Assembly (NCBI GenBank): GCA_037576215.1
Contig: JBANDB010000010.1
Span: 1,116,001-1,180,000, forward strand
Direction: 5' to 3'
DNA from: Armillaria gallica
Lineage: Eukaryota; Basidiomycota; Agaricomycetes; Agaricales; Physalacriaceae
Length of the DNA stretch: 64,000 nt
Shown: one piece after another, positions 17,879 through 23,196 of the stretch
Layout: each line of letters starts with the position of its first letter
How positions within the stretch are numbered: the first letter of the stretch is position 1
Program-made: the position numbers and the translations under genes
The notes under the pieces: model-generated
The model's input: only the letters and a program-made list of their open reading frames with translations
Told to the model about the DNA's origin: nothing
Database searches by the model: none

Positions 17879-19474
17879 TCACTTCGTAGAGGGCGCAGGA
17901 GATTGGACTTCCTTGCCTTTCTCCTCTTTACCCTCCTCCGGCTTCGGAGGCCCGCCCTTCATTTGGTCGATAGCGTCCCACAGATTGCTGGGCACTTGAG
18001 CCGCCATCATCTGCCGATCTTGCTCCAGCAACTTGTCCAGCTGTTCCCGATTTTTCTCTATGTACGCCTGCTCCTCCAGGTAGTTTCGCTGCGCCTCCTT
18101 CCGCTTCTGCTCGAGGTAGGTCAGCGGTACGGGCTCAGTCTGGCTGCCCAGGCCAAACATAGCGGCAAAAGGATTCGGTGAGCCCTGCTTCTTCTTCTTC
18201 CACTCCTCGATATGCCTCTGCTTTCCCTCTGCCTCCTTCTTGGCGTATTCCAACGGAATATCCTTCCCTTGGTAAGCCGTTATGATAGGACGGACGTCGG
18301 TGGGTTTGTAGATAGCTATTGATTCTAGGAAAGGGATCATAGCTACGAGTCCTCGGTCGCCTTGGCTTCCGTCCCATTTGGGTAGTATTATGGCGTTTTC
18401 GGGATGGGTGGAGACGTGCTCTGGGTTCGTGTCGAGGACGACAACTTTTGACAAATCGCGATTAAGATACGATAGATCCTATGCGTGGGGGTCATTTACG
18501 ATTGTCCTGTGATTATGTCGCTTCTTACCTTTACAACGTGCCCATTCAATGACCTGGTAGCCTCTCGATGGAGACGGTGGGATATAAAAAATCCATATTT
18601 GTCAAGTTTATCGAGTATAGGTGCGGCCGTCTGCGCATGGTCGTTGGAAAGGAAGCCCGGAGGAATAACCGACACGCACATAAAGATGTTGAGTAGTAAA
18701 TATTACCACCTCATAGAACTGCGAAACATAAGCAAGGAAATAATCCACGCCCGGTCGTTTCGCGGTTCGCCATCCATGTTGACGCTAGGGTTGAATTTAG
18801 ATGATGATGGTGATAAGGACACTAAATGGGCAAGACGTACATCCCATATCGAAGTGACCAGTAGGTCGTCGACGGATACTATTAATGTATACGGCTTTTG
18901 GTGCGGGGCAGGATATGGGGGAGGTAAAAGTTCTGGCCATGCAGGTTCACTGAAGTACTAGCACAGAGAGGAAAACCGTTAGACTTGAATTGACAGCAGC
19001 CAGCAGCGCGCATACCCCCAGCATGTATTTGAATCGTGTCTTCGTTCTTCCCCATCGTGTTGAAGGAGCATTTTCGGAAGTCTAAGGAAAGATTACTGAG
19101 AGTCGGGAACAAATGCCCCAGTAACGTACCAATCTTTTGTCTTTCAACTCATCTTCACTCCAGTCTCTGGACATGTACGCGACATTGAATCCAAATAGCA
19201 CTGCCAATAGAGCCGCTGAGATCCTTCCCACTTGTTTCCGCTGAGCTTCTGCAGATGTCACCGAGTCTCTCGACCGTGCACCCGTCCGCCGAGGTTCTTC
19301 CTGTTCTTCTGTTGGCAAGATATCAAGGCTGGGGAATGAGGTGGAAGTGGGCTGAGGTTGCTCTTGTGCATCTGTCTGTGGAGGTTTCGGGGGGGCTGGA
19401 GGTATCTGAGACATACATCGTGCGGCATATCCGACGGAGCGTCGCGCAATGGGCCGCGAAAGAAGAGCGAACAT
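17879..19474 (-). CDS. TIM50: Mitochondrial import translocase subunit TIM50
   Basis: Receptor subunit of the TIM23 presequence translocase in the inner membrane. ATG at 19474 starts an Arg-rich, acid-poor presequence ([20 protein letters not shown]), then a Pro/Gln linker and one membrane span ([17 protein letters not shown]). The intermembrane-space FCP1-like domain follows over several exons: [88 protein letters not shown] and [21 protein letters not shown]. The phosphatase motif DxDx[TV] is degenerate (VDDLLV), as is normal for Tim50. The C-terminus is a charged helix ending [11 protein letters not shown]. Splices at 19132 and around 18994, 18835, 18688 and 18530 keep phase. It is divergent from PCNA across 211 bp and convergent with the unknown protein upstream. 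Confidence 0.93.
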
Positions 19475-19614
19475 GAGGGTGAACACAAGGAAAATATTCC
19501 CGATTTGTGTATGACCGTATTTGTCTCGGAAGCTCTCGGCATGGCGGCATAGCGGGTATAACACGCCACCGTTATGCGTGACGTGACGATGCGTGAGGGC
19601 CCTGCGAAAAATCG

Positions 19615-19620
19615 ACGCGT
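19615..19620. promoter_or_regulatory. MluI cell-cycle box (MCB), distal
   Basis: ACGCGT, 66-71 bp upstream of the PCNA ATG in the TIM50-PCNA divergent promoter, directly followed by a CT microsatellite. MCB is the MBF target driving G1/S transcription of replication genes in yeasts. Function here is inferred. Confidence 0.6.
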
Positions 19621-19659
19621 CTCTCTCTCTCTCTTTCTTACCTACCACCCACCACCTAA

Positions 19660-19665
19660 ACGCGT
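19660..19665. promoter_or_regulatory. MluI cell-cycle box (MCB), proximal
   Basis: A second ACGCGT, 21-26 bp before the PCNA ATG and 45 bp from the first. Paired MCBs next to PCNA match known MBF-dependent regulation of replication genes in ascomycete yeasts. It may lie within the 5' untranslated region. Confidence 0.6.
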
Positions 19666-19685
19666 CTTTTCCCTCCCCGCCCGCC

Positions 19686-21023
19686 ATGCTTGAGGCCAAA
19701 CTCCAGGAAGCCAGTGTTCTCAAGAAACTGCTAGATGGTGGGCTCTCCATGATATCGCTTTGACGCGCTTGCTGACCGTTCTTGCAGCCATCAAAGAACT
19801 CGTCACCGACGCCAACTTTGAGTGCAATGAGGAGGGTATCAACCTCCAGGCGATGGATAACTCCCATGTCGCGCTCGTCTCCGTGTTGCTGGAAGCCCCT
19901 GGCTTCAAGCGGTACAGATGCGACCGACCAATGCCCTTGGGCGTGAACCTCGCCAGTCTCACCAAGGTCCTCAAATGCGCAAAAGATGATGACGAGTGTA
20001 CAATCAAGGCCGCTGATGAGGCTGACGTGCTGAATCTGGTATACGAAGCCAAACGTAAGTGGCTGACACGTTCTGCATCTCTTTGTGCTGCGTGCTGACA
20101 GCGACTGGCAGATACGGATCGCATAGCAGAGTATGACATGAAACTGATGGACATTGACTCTGACACGCTTGGGATACCGGAAACCGATTATGACGCGCGC
20201 GTGACGATGGCGTCCGTTGAGTTTAGCAGGATCGTGAGGGACCTGTCTTTGCTCGGTGAAAGTGTACGGATCGAAGTCAGCAAGGAAGGCGTGCGATTTG
20301 CCAGCGATGGAGAAGCTGCTAATGGAAGTGTGCTTTTGAAGCCTACAGAGGGTGTTGGCAAAGTACCGAAGAAAGACGAAGACGCCGAGGAGGAGCAAGG
20401 TGAAGAGGCAAACGACGATAACGAAGATGAGGAGGAAGCCGAGGACGGAAAGAGGGTCAAGAAGGAGAAGACTAAGGTTAAGAAGGAGAAGGACACCGAA
20501 GATGTCGAGATGGAGGACGAGGAGGAGAACGACAATGAGAACTTCAAGCCCGAGGGAGACGACGATGAAGAGAAGGACTCTGATGACGAGGAGAGCGGAA
20601 AGAAGAGAAAGAAGAAGGTTTGTCGAGTCGTACTCATTTTGCGTCCCACTTCACTGACAGGCGCCGGTCATCAGCAAGCGAACGGGGCGAGCAGCAAGAA
20701 AGCCAAGACCGTGGCTTCATCTTCGAAAGGGAAGGGAAAGAAGAAAGAAAAGGATGACGACAAAGACTTTGAGGGCGTCATCATTGAGCTGAACCAGCAC
20801 GTCTCGCTGACGTTCTCGCTCAAGTACTTGGTCAACTTTTCCAAGAGCCAGAGTTTGTGTGGAAAGGTGCAGCTGATGATGAGCAATGATGTGCCGCTAC
20901 TGGTGAGCTACTCCAGGTTTCATTGTTCTGAAATGCACTGAATATCGTGAATTGCAGGTGTCATATGAGTTCGGGCAAGGACATATCCGATACTACCTCG
21001 CACCAAAGATCGGAGATGATTGA
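19686..21023 (+). CDS. PCNA: PCNA sliding clamp with a large charged internal insertion
   Basis: Trimeric DNA clamp for replication and repair in the nucleus. Exons 19686-19737, 19788-20054, 20112-20617, 20675-20902 and 20958-21023 join in phase to 372 residues, against about 258-261 usually. Landmarks include [53 protein letters not shown], the interdomain loop region [15 protein letters not shown], and [26 protein letters not shown], where the ubiquitin/SUMO acceptor Lys is residue 164 exactly as in human and yeast. The fold then breaks off near Lys190 and resumes at [19 protein letters not shown] (residue about 309), ending [10 protein letters not shown]. The residues between, about 191-305, are a Glu/Asp/Lys-rich insert with a nuclear-signal-like KKRKKK before the exon 3 boundary. 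No stop or plausible intron pair removes the insert. Two MCB boxes precede the gene. Confidence 0.93.
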
Positions 21024-21447
21024 ACGCGGGCATTTTCAAAAATTTCAATCTATCTATCATAGTGTTTTCTCCTTTTTCTCCCTCGCCTATGTTGTGTTAT
21101 ACAGTATGTCTGTCTGGTTGCCACAATAACAACTCTGTGTCTCCCCCAGCTGTTGCTTGATGACGATTACTTTTTGATAATGTGCTTTTCGCAAGTGCAA
21201 GTTCACTTTATCGTAAACCCAGGTTACATACTTGGACGTGAGTCTATAATTGCATTCGTACGCACTTACCTTCTTAGATGCCCCACCCATTCGGAAGAGT
21301 CTGATTTTCTTGCATCGTGGAGACATCTGCGATATAAAGACAATGCGATAGATTTAGAGCTGCAAGTCACAATACTCGAGTCGTTCAAGATGGAGAAGTA
21401 AAACTACAGCTACGCCGAACATCGTTCCTTCCCTCCTTCAGATGCAA

Positions 21448-21833
21448 CTAAACACTGGTGTGGTTAGCTGTATGGCTCGGGGCAGCGCTGTTACTGGGAA
21501 CACAGAGCCTCTACAGACACAAATAACAGGTTAGGACACTGTAGACAAGACATCGAACCTGACTCACATCACCAATCTGCAAATTGTCGCAATCGATACC
21601 AGGATTGGCATCCTCGAGTCGGGAGACGGAGGTCCCTCCTTCGGAGGCGATGTCCCAGCAGGTATCTTTGGCGACGACAATATGGGTGTATCCTGGGGTT
21701 CCGTTGTCGCACTCGGCTTTGACACCTAAGGTGGAAGAATGAGTAAGAAGGAGACGCCGGTGTGAGGAAACGTACTGGCACTCATAGCCGCTGTCGCGAT
21801 AAAAGCAAGGACGATTAAAGCACGAGAGAACAT
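21448..21833 (-). CDS. Secreted single-LysM protein, copy A
   Basis: Small secreted protein likely to bind chitin or N-acetylglucosamine oligomers outside the cell, resembling fungal LysM effectors. ATG at 21833 gives the signal peptide MFSRALIVLAFIATAAMSA. A phase-1 intron (GTACG...TTAG) follows, then one LysM domain with THIVVAKDTCWDIA, SVSRLEDANPGIDC and NLQIGD; a second intron leads to RLCVPSNSAAPSH and a stop at 21448-21450. Four Cys fit two disulfides. About 85 residues before processing. The mature part is identical to copy B; only two signal-peptide residues differ. TATAAAAA lies at 21882-21889, about 50 bp upstream. Being single-domain and very short, it could also be a self-chitin-masking protein. 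Confidence 0.85.
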
Positions 21834-21881
21834 GTTTGAATGTAGCTTTGGTGCTGGGATGCAGAGAGTGGTCGGGTGGCC

Positions 21882-21889
21882 TTTTTATA
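21882..21889 (-). promoter_or_regulatory. TATA box of LysM copy A
   Basis: Minus-strand TATAAAAA, 49-56 bp before the start codon. Homology with copy B ends just here. Confidence 0.6.
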
Positions 21890-23196
21890 CGCAATCGAAA
21901 GTAAGAGAAATCCTTTTTGCCATATCGACAGGAATTAGTCTTGTTTCATCGTCGTCCCGTGGTAATCGCACTCAAGGTTAGTGTCTGTAAGCCAGAGGAA
22001 AGTAGAATCGAGGACAGATTCCTGAGCCCCGTTTTGTGCTGCGATCAACATGGGCGAACTCGTGTTAGAACTAGAAGCCTCGATGTACTGAAACTAATTG
22101 CTCTAAACATATTTTTGCCTAGCATGCAAAGTGGGTCACAAGCTAACGTTTAAAACACAAGAGAAATTCACGAGGACAGAGGACGGCGACAGCATGGCAG
22201 ATTTGTAACGATAGAAATTTTCATGGTCGCTGGCCGGGAGAATTTCCGGTTGGTGAAAAATTGCGTAGAGGCATACACGAAAATTTCTGGGATGCAAATT
22301 CGTCAACAAGATAGCAATATTACAGAGAGTGAATTGAACCTGCTGTGGTTGGAGGAATGAAATAGTGGAAGGTGTAGAGGAGGAAAGCAAGTACTGATGG
22401 ACCGGGCCGACCGGCCAGTCCACCGACTCTCGTTACTACTTCGACTCACCTTTCGAGGAAACTCTTGGTCTTCGTATCGACTGCATGTATCGCCAGTCGG
22501 CCCTCAAACTACGAATCCTCGTCTATATTTTTTGTCTTCTGTGCCATACTTGAAGATGACTCATCTACTCTGTTGCTCTGCCATTCACATCCAGCAGACA
22601 CCGGTGGATGTCTGCAATGATTCTGTGCCTCTTCTAAGGATTTTTGTTATTCTTTAGAGTTGGAAAACTTGAATATCTGGGACCTAGGTTGTTGACCATT
22701 GAACACCGTCGCTCACGACTTGTGAATTCTGGAACCAAATATCGAGATTCGAAGACAGCTATTCACGACGTTAACACCCCCACCTGATTTTCTTTTCTTC
22801 CAGCCTGGCGCGATGGTCCTTCCATGAAAAGACAACCTGTCTACTGGACCTGTGACTATAGATGGAAACGACAAACAAACCGGTAGATGGTATTTTCCAA
22901 CCGCCGTGGAGCAGTCGAAGAGCTCAGACGCTAGACGTATACGGTATTGGAACGTAATTGAACTCCGCCGAAACAGCGAAGCTCGTGGTTCGTCATTGCT
23001 AGTCAAAACAATTATCTTCTTCTAGCGTATACACCACTTCTCCCATTTTGATCGCCATTCGCAGCGCTCGGGAACCCCGCTTTTTTTCTACACTAGTGGC
23101 TCACGAACCCGACTACCACGGGCATCAGGACGATGGAAGTCCTTGATCTGTGATATTCGTACTCTCAGCTGGTGCGTCGGTGCTGGGACCTGGACC
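21890..23196. other. Spacer between the inverted LysM copies
   Basis: About 1.3 kb between the two divergently oriented LysM genes, containing their upstream regions. Short ORFs (22136-22423, 22397-22657, 22713-23006) match nothing I know. No terminal repeats or transposase remnant were seen that would explain the duplication. Confidence 0.5.

What the first reader, a model, noticed from the sequence alone, without database searches (positions are those of the whole stretch)
20363..20764. PCNA carries a charged insertion of about 114 residues in the loop after Lys190
The clamp is canonical on both sides (Lys164 in place; strands resume at [13 protein letters not shown]) but has about 114 extra Glu/Asp/Lys residues where the human protein has the short acidic DKEEE loop. 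This loop sits at the edge of domain 2, so three long polyampholyte arms would decorate the ring without blocking closure. They could tether partners, histones or DNA, or self-regulate by charge. The run KKRKKK could be a nuclear signal. I recall a report of alternatively truncated PCNA forms in Coprinus, so related insertions may exist in mushrooms; I could not check this.
Basis: partly seen in the sequence, partly recalled or inferred. Interest (0 to 1): 0.75.

Follow-up and report, generated by a model that had tools for sequence, protein, structure and literature searches.

The report
Charged arm on mushroom replication clamp
In honey mushrooms, PCNA (the protein ring that holds DNA polymerase on DNA) carries a long, floppy, charged arm; such an arm has been noted before in a few related fungi, but it turns out to be widespread in mushrooms, smuts, rusts and their yeasts and keeps the same short signals, which suggests a role in nuclear targeting and perhaps SUMO tagging.

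Summary
Confirmed. The window (an Armillaria-like genome; best match 98% to A. nabsnona) holds a single-copy, five-exon PCNA gene (19686-21023, +) for a 372-aa clamp. The loop after strand D2 (aa 184-309) is 126 aa, against 10-15 aa in 23 non-basidiomycete fungi. The 120 best homologues listed all have 105-150 aa there, though 13 other named Agaricomycete models lack most of it. The arm occurs in all three basidiomycete subphyla, so it is probably ancestral. It is predicted disordered, charge-blocked, and keeps a KKRK-like motif in 96 of 100 hand-picked sequences and, in Agaricomycetes/Dacrymycetes, SUMO-consensus psi-K-x-[DE] motifs in 63 of 63 (29.3 expected). Best reading: a flexible back-loop arm presenting a nuclear localisation signal, with SUMO-acceptor sites prominent in Agaricomycotina. 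Function is inferred. The insertion is not new: a 2022 review notes it in Cryptococcus, and I recall a 2002 Coprinus paper. The wide distribution and motif conservation are what I add.

The parts
19686..21023 (+). PCNA gene, five exons (19686-19737, 19788-20054, 20112-20617, 20675-20902, 20958-21023), 372 aa
   Evidence: splicing in script; PCNA_C over the cut-off on two exons; 98% to A. nabsnona PCNA
20282..20284 (+). codon of Lys164, the conserved ubiquitin/SUMO site of PCNA
   Evidence: invariant in 50 sequences; role from PMC9225081
20342..20617 (+). first, larger part of the arm (aa 184-275), in exon 3
   Evidence: loop boundaries by alignment
20618..20674 (+). 57-nt phase-0 intron inside the arm, right after KKRKKK; donor GTTTGT, CTGAC at 20654, acceptor CAG
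   Evidence: same join in P0001; 24 of 29 environmental ORFs that break off after the motif show Val within 9 residues (my reading of the tails)
20675..20776 (+). second part of the arm (aa 276-309), in exon 4
20456..20470 (+). VKKEK (aa 222-226), psi-K-x-E SUMO-consensus motif 1
20477..20491 (+). VKKEK (aa 229-233), psi-K-x-E motif 2; AAGAAGGAGAAG is repeated exactly at 20459 and 20480
20498..20524 (+). EDVEMEDEE, acidic stretch after the psi-K-x-E motifs; a DVEM-like string is in 58 of 63 Agarico/Dacrymycete loops
20543..20554 (+). FKPE (aa 251-254), third psi-K-x-E match
20579..20596 (+). SDDEES, CK2-type acidic serine site just before the basic cluster
   Evidence: CK2 pattern recalled
20600..20617 (+). 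KKRKKK (aa 270-275), classical NLS-like cluster
20693..20707 (+). SKKAK, second basic cluster (possible second half of a bipartite NLS)
   Evidence: bipartite pattern in 83 of 100; position
20726..20746 (+). KGKGKKK, basic tail of the arm

Best explanation
An ordinary PCNA ring whose back loop is extended into a disordered, charge-blocked arm of about 115 extra residues per subunit. The arm is an old basidiomycete feature. Its ancestral and most conserved job is most likely to present a classical nuclear localisation signal (KKRKKK, often with a second basic cluster 10-12 residues on) on a flexible stalk, in Armillaria and many others next to an acidic CK2-type serine site that could tune import or retention. 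In Agaricomycotina the arm also carries psi-K-x-[DE] motifs followed by acidic residues, which would make it a SUMO acceptor on the ring that bears Lys164. Shown here: gene structure, loop position, distribution, predicted disorder, motif enrichment. Inferred: nuclear import, phosphorylation, SUMO modification.
For: Arm in all three subphyla and absent in 23 other fungi (hand-picked set). KKRK-like in 96 of 100 against about 4 expected from global shuffles (sum of groups) and about 8 from local shuffles; it is also in 13 of 13 Ustilaginomycotina, whose loops (median 41 aa) hold little more than an acidic run and this cluster. Bipartite basic pattern in 83 of 100, about 36 expected. psi-K-x-[DE] in 63 of 63 Agarico/Dacrymycetes (29.3 expected) and 8 of 12 Tremellomycetes (2.5 expected); with acidic residues downstream 61 of 63 and 8 of 12 (23.6 and 1.6 expected). 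psi-K-x-[DE] precedes KKRK in 62 of 63. Charge segregation median z 7.3-9.2 by group. pLDDT 44-52 for residues 201-300.
Against: No experiment. Shuffle controls keep composition, not ancestry. Four of 100 lack KKRK by the pattern used. The bipartite pattern is in 0 of 13 Ustilaginomycotina, and CK2-like sites before KKRK in only 43 of 100 and 0 of 12 Tremellomycetes. psi-K-x-[DE] is in only 1 of 13 Ustilaginomycotina, and 9 of 12 Pucciniomycotina against 5.0 expected is weak. The same motif also occurs in the structured clamp (24 of 63 Agarico/Dacrymycetes, 18 of 23 other fungi). Other fungi manage without the arm, so it is not needed for import of PCNA in general. 13 named Agaricomycete models, and two Psilocybe cyanescens models, lack the arm.
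Confidence: 0.5

Rival explanations
1. SUMO regulation first: the main selected function is SUMO conjugation (and in some lineages SUMO binding) on the arm, near Lys164, standing in for the Lys127 site of budding yeast to control recombination or partner choice; the NLS is secondary.
For: psi-K-x-[DE] enrichment and order; acidic residues downstream fit the NDSM definition (PMC5727262, abstract start in the listing); residue 127 is Gly here (G127 nearly invariant) and Lys127 is confined to S. cerevisiae and C. glabrata among 15 fungi (PMC9225081); SIM-like motifs in 10 of 100 loops.
Against: Absent from 12 of 13 Ustilaginomycotina, weak in Pucciniomycotina, while the KKRK cluster is kept there; SIM-like motif absent from Armillaria and from 90 of 100; K/E-rich sequence yields such motifs easily.
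Confidence: 0.25
2. Charge tether: alternating acidic and basic blocks hold partners, histones or DNA, or help PCNA gather in replication foci.
For: Charge-block z of 7.3-9.2 (group medians) over composition shuffles; predicted disorder.
Against: Charge blocks are also what an NLS beside acidic sites would give; no partner evidence; block number and length differ between subphyla (profiles).
Confidence: 0.13
3. Near-neutral growth: a surface loop that tolerates low-complexity expansion, with motifs arising from K/E-rich slippage.
For: Insert evolves faster than clamp (A. nabsnona: clamp 246 of 246 identical, insert 120 of 126; Pleurotus P0075: 203 of 246 and 55 of 113); length 38-175 aa over the phylum; two exact AAGAAGGAGAAG copies 21 nt apart in the window; repeat-flanked length differences in two pairs of near-identical proteins.
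Against: Motif content and order far above local shuffles; conserved intron position; no long tandem repeat in the arm now.
Confidence: 0.1
4. The arm is largely removed from mature mRNA, or is a prediction artefact in long models.
For: 13 named Agaricomycete models (e.g. Laccaria 256 aa, Heterobasidion 263 aa) and two Psilocybe cyanescens models lack most of it. I recall that a truncated second PCNA form was reported in Coprinus (paper not in the library).
Against: Only one good donor in the arm in the window, 20618 (crude score); short and long models occur within Lentinula, Lentinus and Irpex, which points to annotation choice; 120 of 120 models listed contain it. I had no DNA or RNA of the short-model species.
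Confidence: 0.02

Closest known systems
Coprinopsis (Coprinus) cinerea PCNA, 'CoPCNA-alpha' (Hamada et al. 2002, Eur J Biochem; recalled, paper not seen)
   Same: Insertion in the same loop; P0031 of C. cinerea is 368 aa, 107 more than the 261-aa chain 1axc_A (human by recall); same VKKE/IKKE, DVxM, KKRKKK order.
   Different: A truncated second form was reported there (recalled); I found no second good donor in the window gene. Arm sequence 68 of 112 aligned residues identical.
Cryptococcus neoformans PCNA (PMC9225081, section 23 read)
   Same: Insertion of over 80 residues in the P-loop/back loop, said to be absent from the other species compared; KKRK-like cluster in P0289.
   Different: Loop 98 aa in P0289 against 126 aa here; the review gives no motifs or function.
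Trypanosomatid PCNA (PMC5662062, passages)
   Different: A distant lineage, shorter; I did not align it, so exact position and relation are untested; presumably independent.
Ascomycete and human PCNA (solved structures)
   Same: Same clamp fold: target-normalised TM 0.92-0.98 in the 50 PDB rows listed.
   Different: No arm; loop 10-15 aa in 23 non-basidiomycete fungi.

Membership tests
Eukaryotic PCNA | PCNA_N and PCNA_C domains | tested here: met
   PCNA_C over the cut-off on the window's own exons; both domains over cut-off in the 98% identical P0001. The spliced window protein itself was not run against Pfam.
Eukaryotic PCNA | Clamp fold | tested here: met
   AlphaFold2 of P0001 and Foldseek
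Eukaryotic PCNA | Lys164 | tested here: met
Eukaryotic PCNA | Homotrimeric ring on DNA | not testable with these tools
   needs purified protein; no trimer was modelled
Basidiomycete PCNA with P-loop insertion (Coprinus/Cryptococcus type) | Long charged insertion between strands D2 and E2 | tested here: met
Basidiomycete PCNA with P-loop insertion (Coprinus/Cryptococcus type) | Arm present in the mature protein | not testable with these tools
   no RNA or protein data; only gene models and splice signals
Classical NLS | Basic cluster of K-K/R-x-K/R type in an exposed, disordered segment | tested here: met
   KKRKKK at aa 270-275, pLDDT about 46-50 there; consensus recalled
Classical NLS | Drives nuclear import | not testable with these tools
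   needs a reporter or mutant
NDSM SUMO substrate | psi-K-x-[DE] followed by acidic residues | tested here: met
   two sites in the window arm; definition from PMC5727262, abstract start in listing; my threshold of 4 acidic in 10 is arbitrary
NDSM SUMO substrate | SUMO conjugated in the cell | not testable with these tools
   needs pull-down or mass spectrometry

The most novel reading that the evidence does not exclude
The replication clamp of a whole fungal phylum carries three built-in disordered regulatory arms that combine a nuclear-import signal with SUMO-acceptor (and in some lineages SUMO-binding) motifs on the Lys164 side of the ring. SUMO control of PCNA, which budding yeast partly runs through Lys127, would sit on an evolvable arm, and clamp supply, recombination and meiosis in basidiomycetes would be regulated through it.
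Probability: 0.25. Interest if true: 0.72.

Novelty: new member of a known kind. Interest (0 to 1): 0.48.

Why it matters
PCNA is one of the most conserved eukaryotic proteins. An added segment almost half as long as the human protein, kept in all three basidiomycete subphyla sampled with the same short motifs, suggests that the back of the ring can be extended without loss of function and that part of its regulation may lie in a disordered arm. This can be tested directly by removing the arm in Coprinopsis cinerea. It also suggests that a number of public basidiomycete PCNA models are mis-annotated.

Tried and rejected
Assembly error or gene merge: rejected (120 of 120 listed homologues carry the arm; one locus). 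Long tandem-repeat expansion: Tandem Repeats Finder on 19600-21100 found only a two-copy 9-nt repeat inside the arm (20598-20615). A 43-nt intron with acceptor at 20660 would shift the frame and lies 3 nt after the branch-type A, so 20674 is preferred. SIM motifs as a general feature: dropped, 10 of 100 have one by my pattern and Armillaria does not. Papers: searches for the Coprinus report or for basidiomycete PCNA insertions found no survey; the one direct mention found is the sentence on C. neoformans. One of those hits (PMC548137, listing only) holds the words of the Coprinus title. Searches gave listings; from them I opened passages of PMC7255605, PMC4621508, PMC5662062 and PMC3146543; PMC7255605 and PMC3146543 said nothing on this insertion in the passages shown.

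Rows dropped before counting: searches (motif part; motif part) used 123 sequences picked by hand from 336 (335 fetched proteins plus the window protein), about one per genus (two Mycena). Left out were the 13 short Agaricomycete models (P0121, P0123, P0125, P0128-P0136, P0138), the Psilocybe cyanescens copies, fragments, the unnamed environmental sequences, further species of the same genera, non-fungal hits, and the short Phakopsora model P0199 (the longer P0249 of the same species was used). So the presence of the arm in the 100 basidiomycetes is by selection, not a rate. Classes such as Wallemiomycetes were not seen. No tree was built; 'ancestral' is inferred from the distribution. Which face of the ring the arm leaves from was taken from papers, not measured.

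Full report
What is there. The window lies in an 86-Mb assembly of 28 contigs with one PCNA_C locus. Joining exons at GT..AG sites gives a 372-residue PCNA at 19686-21023, + strand. The closest proteins are from Armillaria nabsnona (98% over the full length), Desarmillaria, Guyanagaster and A. mellea. The loop after strand D2 runs from aa 184 to aa 309, before VIIELN: 126 residues, 48 acidic and 30 basic, net charge -18.

The intron in the arm. [19 protein letters not shown], open in the same frame, is best read as an intron: GTTTGT at 20618, CTGAC at 20654, CAG ending at 20674. P0001 joins at the same residues. Of 38 unnamed environmental ORFs in the second search, 6 have no KKRK motif (they are armless clamps), 3 read on into the C-terminal clamp, and 29 break off. 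By my reading of the printed tails, 24 of those 29 show Val, as a phase-0 GT would give, within 9 residues after the motif; some of the 24 share their tails and are not independent. So an intron near this point is common in Agaricomycetes, and the exon before it is open in many of them.

Artefact or not. The 120 best homologues listed all have 105-150 residues in the loop; 10 of those 120 bear no species name, the rest are named Agaricomycetes. Against this, 13 named Agaricomycete models with an otherwise complete clamp lack most of the arm, as do two of several Psilocybe cyanescens models. In Lentinula, Lentinus and Irpex one species has a short and another a long model, so annotation choice is the likelier cause; without their DNA or RNA I cannot exclude real short transcripts. 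In the window, of 16 GT sites in 20330-20790 only 20618 reaches 3 of 4 on my crude donor score.

How far it reaches. A search with the first 185 residues (candidates up to about 324 aa) and one with a profile of seven smut and rust PCNAs brought in the rest. In 100 hand-picked basidiomycete sequences the loop is 76-141 aa in Agaricales (38, window included), 81-142 in other Agaricomycetes (24), 99 in the one Dacrymycete, 57-128 in Tremellomycetes (12), 38-107 in Ustilaginomycotina (13) and 61-175 in Pucciniomycotina (12); in 23 other fungi it is 10-15. The arm is in all three subphyla and absent from the outgroups sampled, so one origin in the basidiomycete ancestor, with later growth, is the simplest reading. 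Tremellomycete arms resemble the second half of the mushroom arm (KPxxDEEGEEEQ..KKRK..NGK..KKAK; my reading).

What is conserved. KKRK-like cluster: 96 of 100, 0 of 23 others; expected about 4 from global and 8 from local shuffles (sums of groups). The four misses are P0142, P0149, P0180 and P0284, each with another basic cluster. Bipartite basic pattern: 83 of 100, about 36 expected, 0 of 13 in Ustilaginomycotina. psi-K-x-[DE]: 63 of 63 Agarico/Dacrymycetes, 8 of 12 Tremellomycetes, 9 of 12 Pucciniomycotina, 1 of 13 Ustilaginomycotina, with 29.3, 2.5, 5.0 and 1.1 expected from shuffles within 20-residue windows. With at least four acidic residues in the next ten: 61, 8, 5 and 1 against 23.6, 1.6, 2.9 and 0.5. 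psi-K-x-[DE] precedes KKRK in 62 of 63 Agarico/Dacrymycetes. Charge segregation: group median z 7.3-9.2 over composition shuffles. CK2-like site before KKRK: 43 of 100, 0 of 12 Tremellomycetes. SIM-like motif: 10 of 100, not in the window. Limits: these controls keep composition, not ancestry, and psi-K-x-[DE] also occurs in the structured clamp (24 of 63 Agarico/Dacrymycetes, 12 of 12 Tremellomycetes, 10 of 13 Ustilaginomycotina, 7 of 12 Pucciniomycotina, 18 of 23 others), so the enrichment is a lead, not proof of SUMO sites.

Structure. AlphaFold2 on P0001 with 50 sequences: ten-residue blocks at 89-98 over the clamp except 76 at residues 121-130 and 48 at the last two residues; 63 at 191-200, 44-52 over 201-300 and 69 at 301-310; no helix or strand from residue 190 to 310, strands resuming at 311. 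Foldseek lists solved PCNAs with target-normalised TM 0.92-0.98 in its 50 rows. The loop is the P-loop or back loop (PMC9225081, section 23 read), and ubiquitin on Lys164 has been placed on the back face or radially (PMC4621508, passages), so arm and Lys164 are probably on the same side; I measured no coordinates.

Mechanism. The short form in smuts is little more than an acidic run and a KKKRK-type cluster, and KKRK is nearly universal in the set, so a nuclear localisation signal on a stalk is the most economical ancestral function; an acidic serine site before it recalls the CK2-NLS module of SV40 T antigen (recalled). psi-K-x-E sites, strongest in Agaricomycotina, would make the arm a SUMO acceptor; yeast's second SUMO site, Lys127, is not available here (Gly127; PMC9225081). 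These steps are inferred. Odds: 0.5 NLS-led arm, 0.25 SUMO first, 0.13 charge tether, 0.10 near-neutral growth, 0.02 removed or artefact.

Novelty. The insertion as such is known: PMC9225081 (2022) notes over 80 extra residues at this place in C. neoformans (section 23 read), and I recall a 2002 paper on Coprinus cinereus that placed 107 extra residues in the D2E2 loop and described a truncated form; it is not in the library, but C. cinerea P0031 is 368 aa, 107 more than the 261-aa chain 1axc_A. Trypanosomatid PCNA has another insertion of over 30 residues (PMC5662062, passage). In the searches made I found no account of the distribution over the phylum or of the conserved motifs; most subscription papers are not in that library.

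Noticed in passing
P0151 (loop): A PCNA filed under a bird (Spelaeornis/Elachura formosa) has a tremellomycete-like loop ending (DEPGVSIILE), so it is probably fungal contamination in a bird assembly.
   Followed up: no
P0122, P0140, P0143, P0148, P0156, P0240: Psilocybe cyanescens has several partial or divergent PCNA models, some without the arm: extra copies, pseudogenes or assembly fragments.
   Followed up: no
P0059 against P0061; P0191 against P0194: Two pairs of otherwise identical proteins (Moniliophthora roreri; an environmental pair) differ by one 14- or 27-residue gap inside the arm: repeat-mediated indel, alternative model or assembly collapse.
   Followed up: partly
Boletales and other non-Agaricales Agaricomycete loops, e.g. 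P0320, P0325, P0334, P0335: The arm begins with a conserved AREKYxNYGK-type stretch in these, which the window and most Agaricales lack; function unknown.
   Followed up: no
window 21511-21894, minus strand: ORF with a LysM domain (PF01476, E 3.9e-10) just downstream of PCNA.
   Followed up: partly
window 19082 to about 19476, minus strand: Reading frame that may belong to a gene facing away from PCNA (shared upstream region); the whole ORF 19082-20398 matched no Pfam family, and its upper part is antisense to PCNA.
   Followed up: partly
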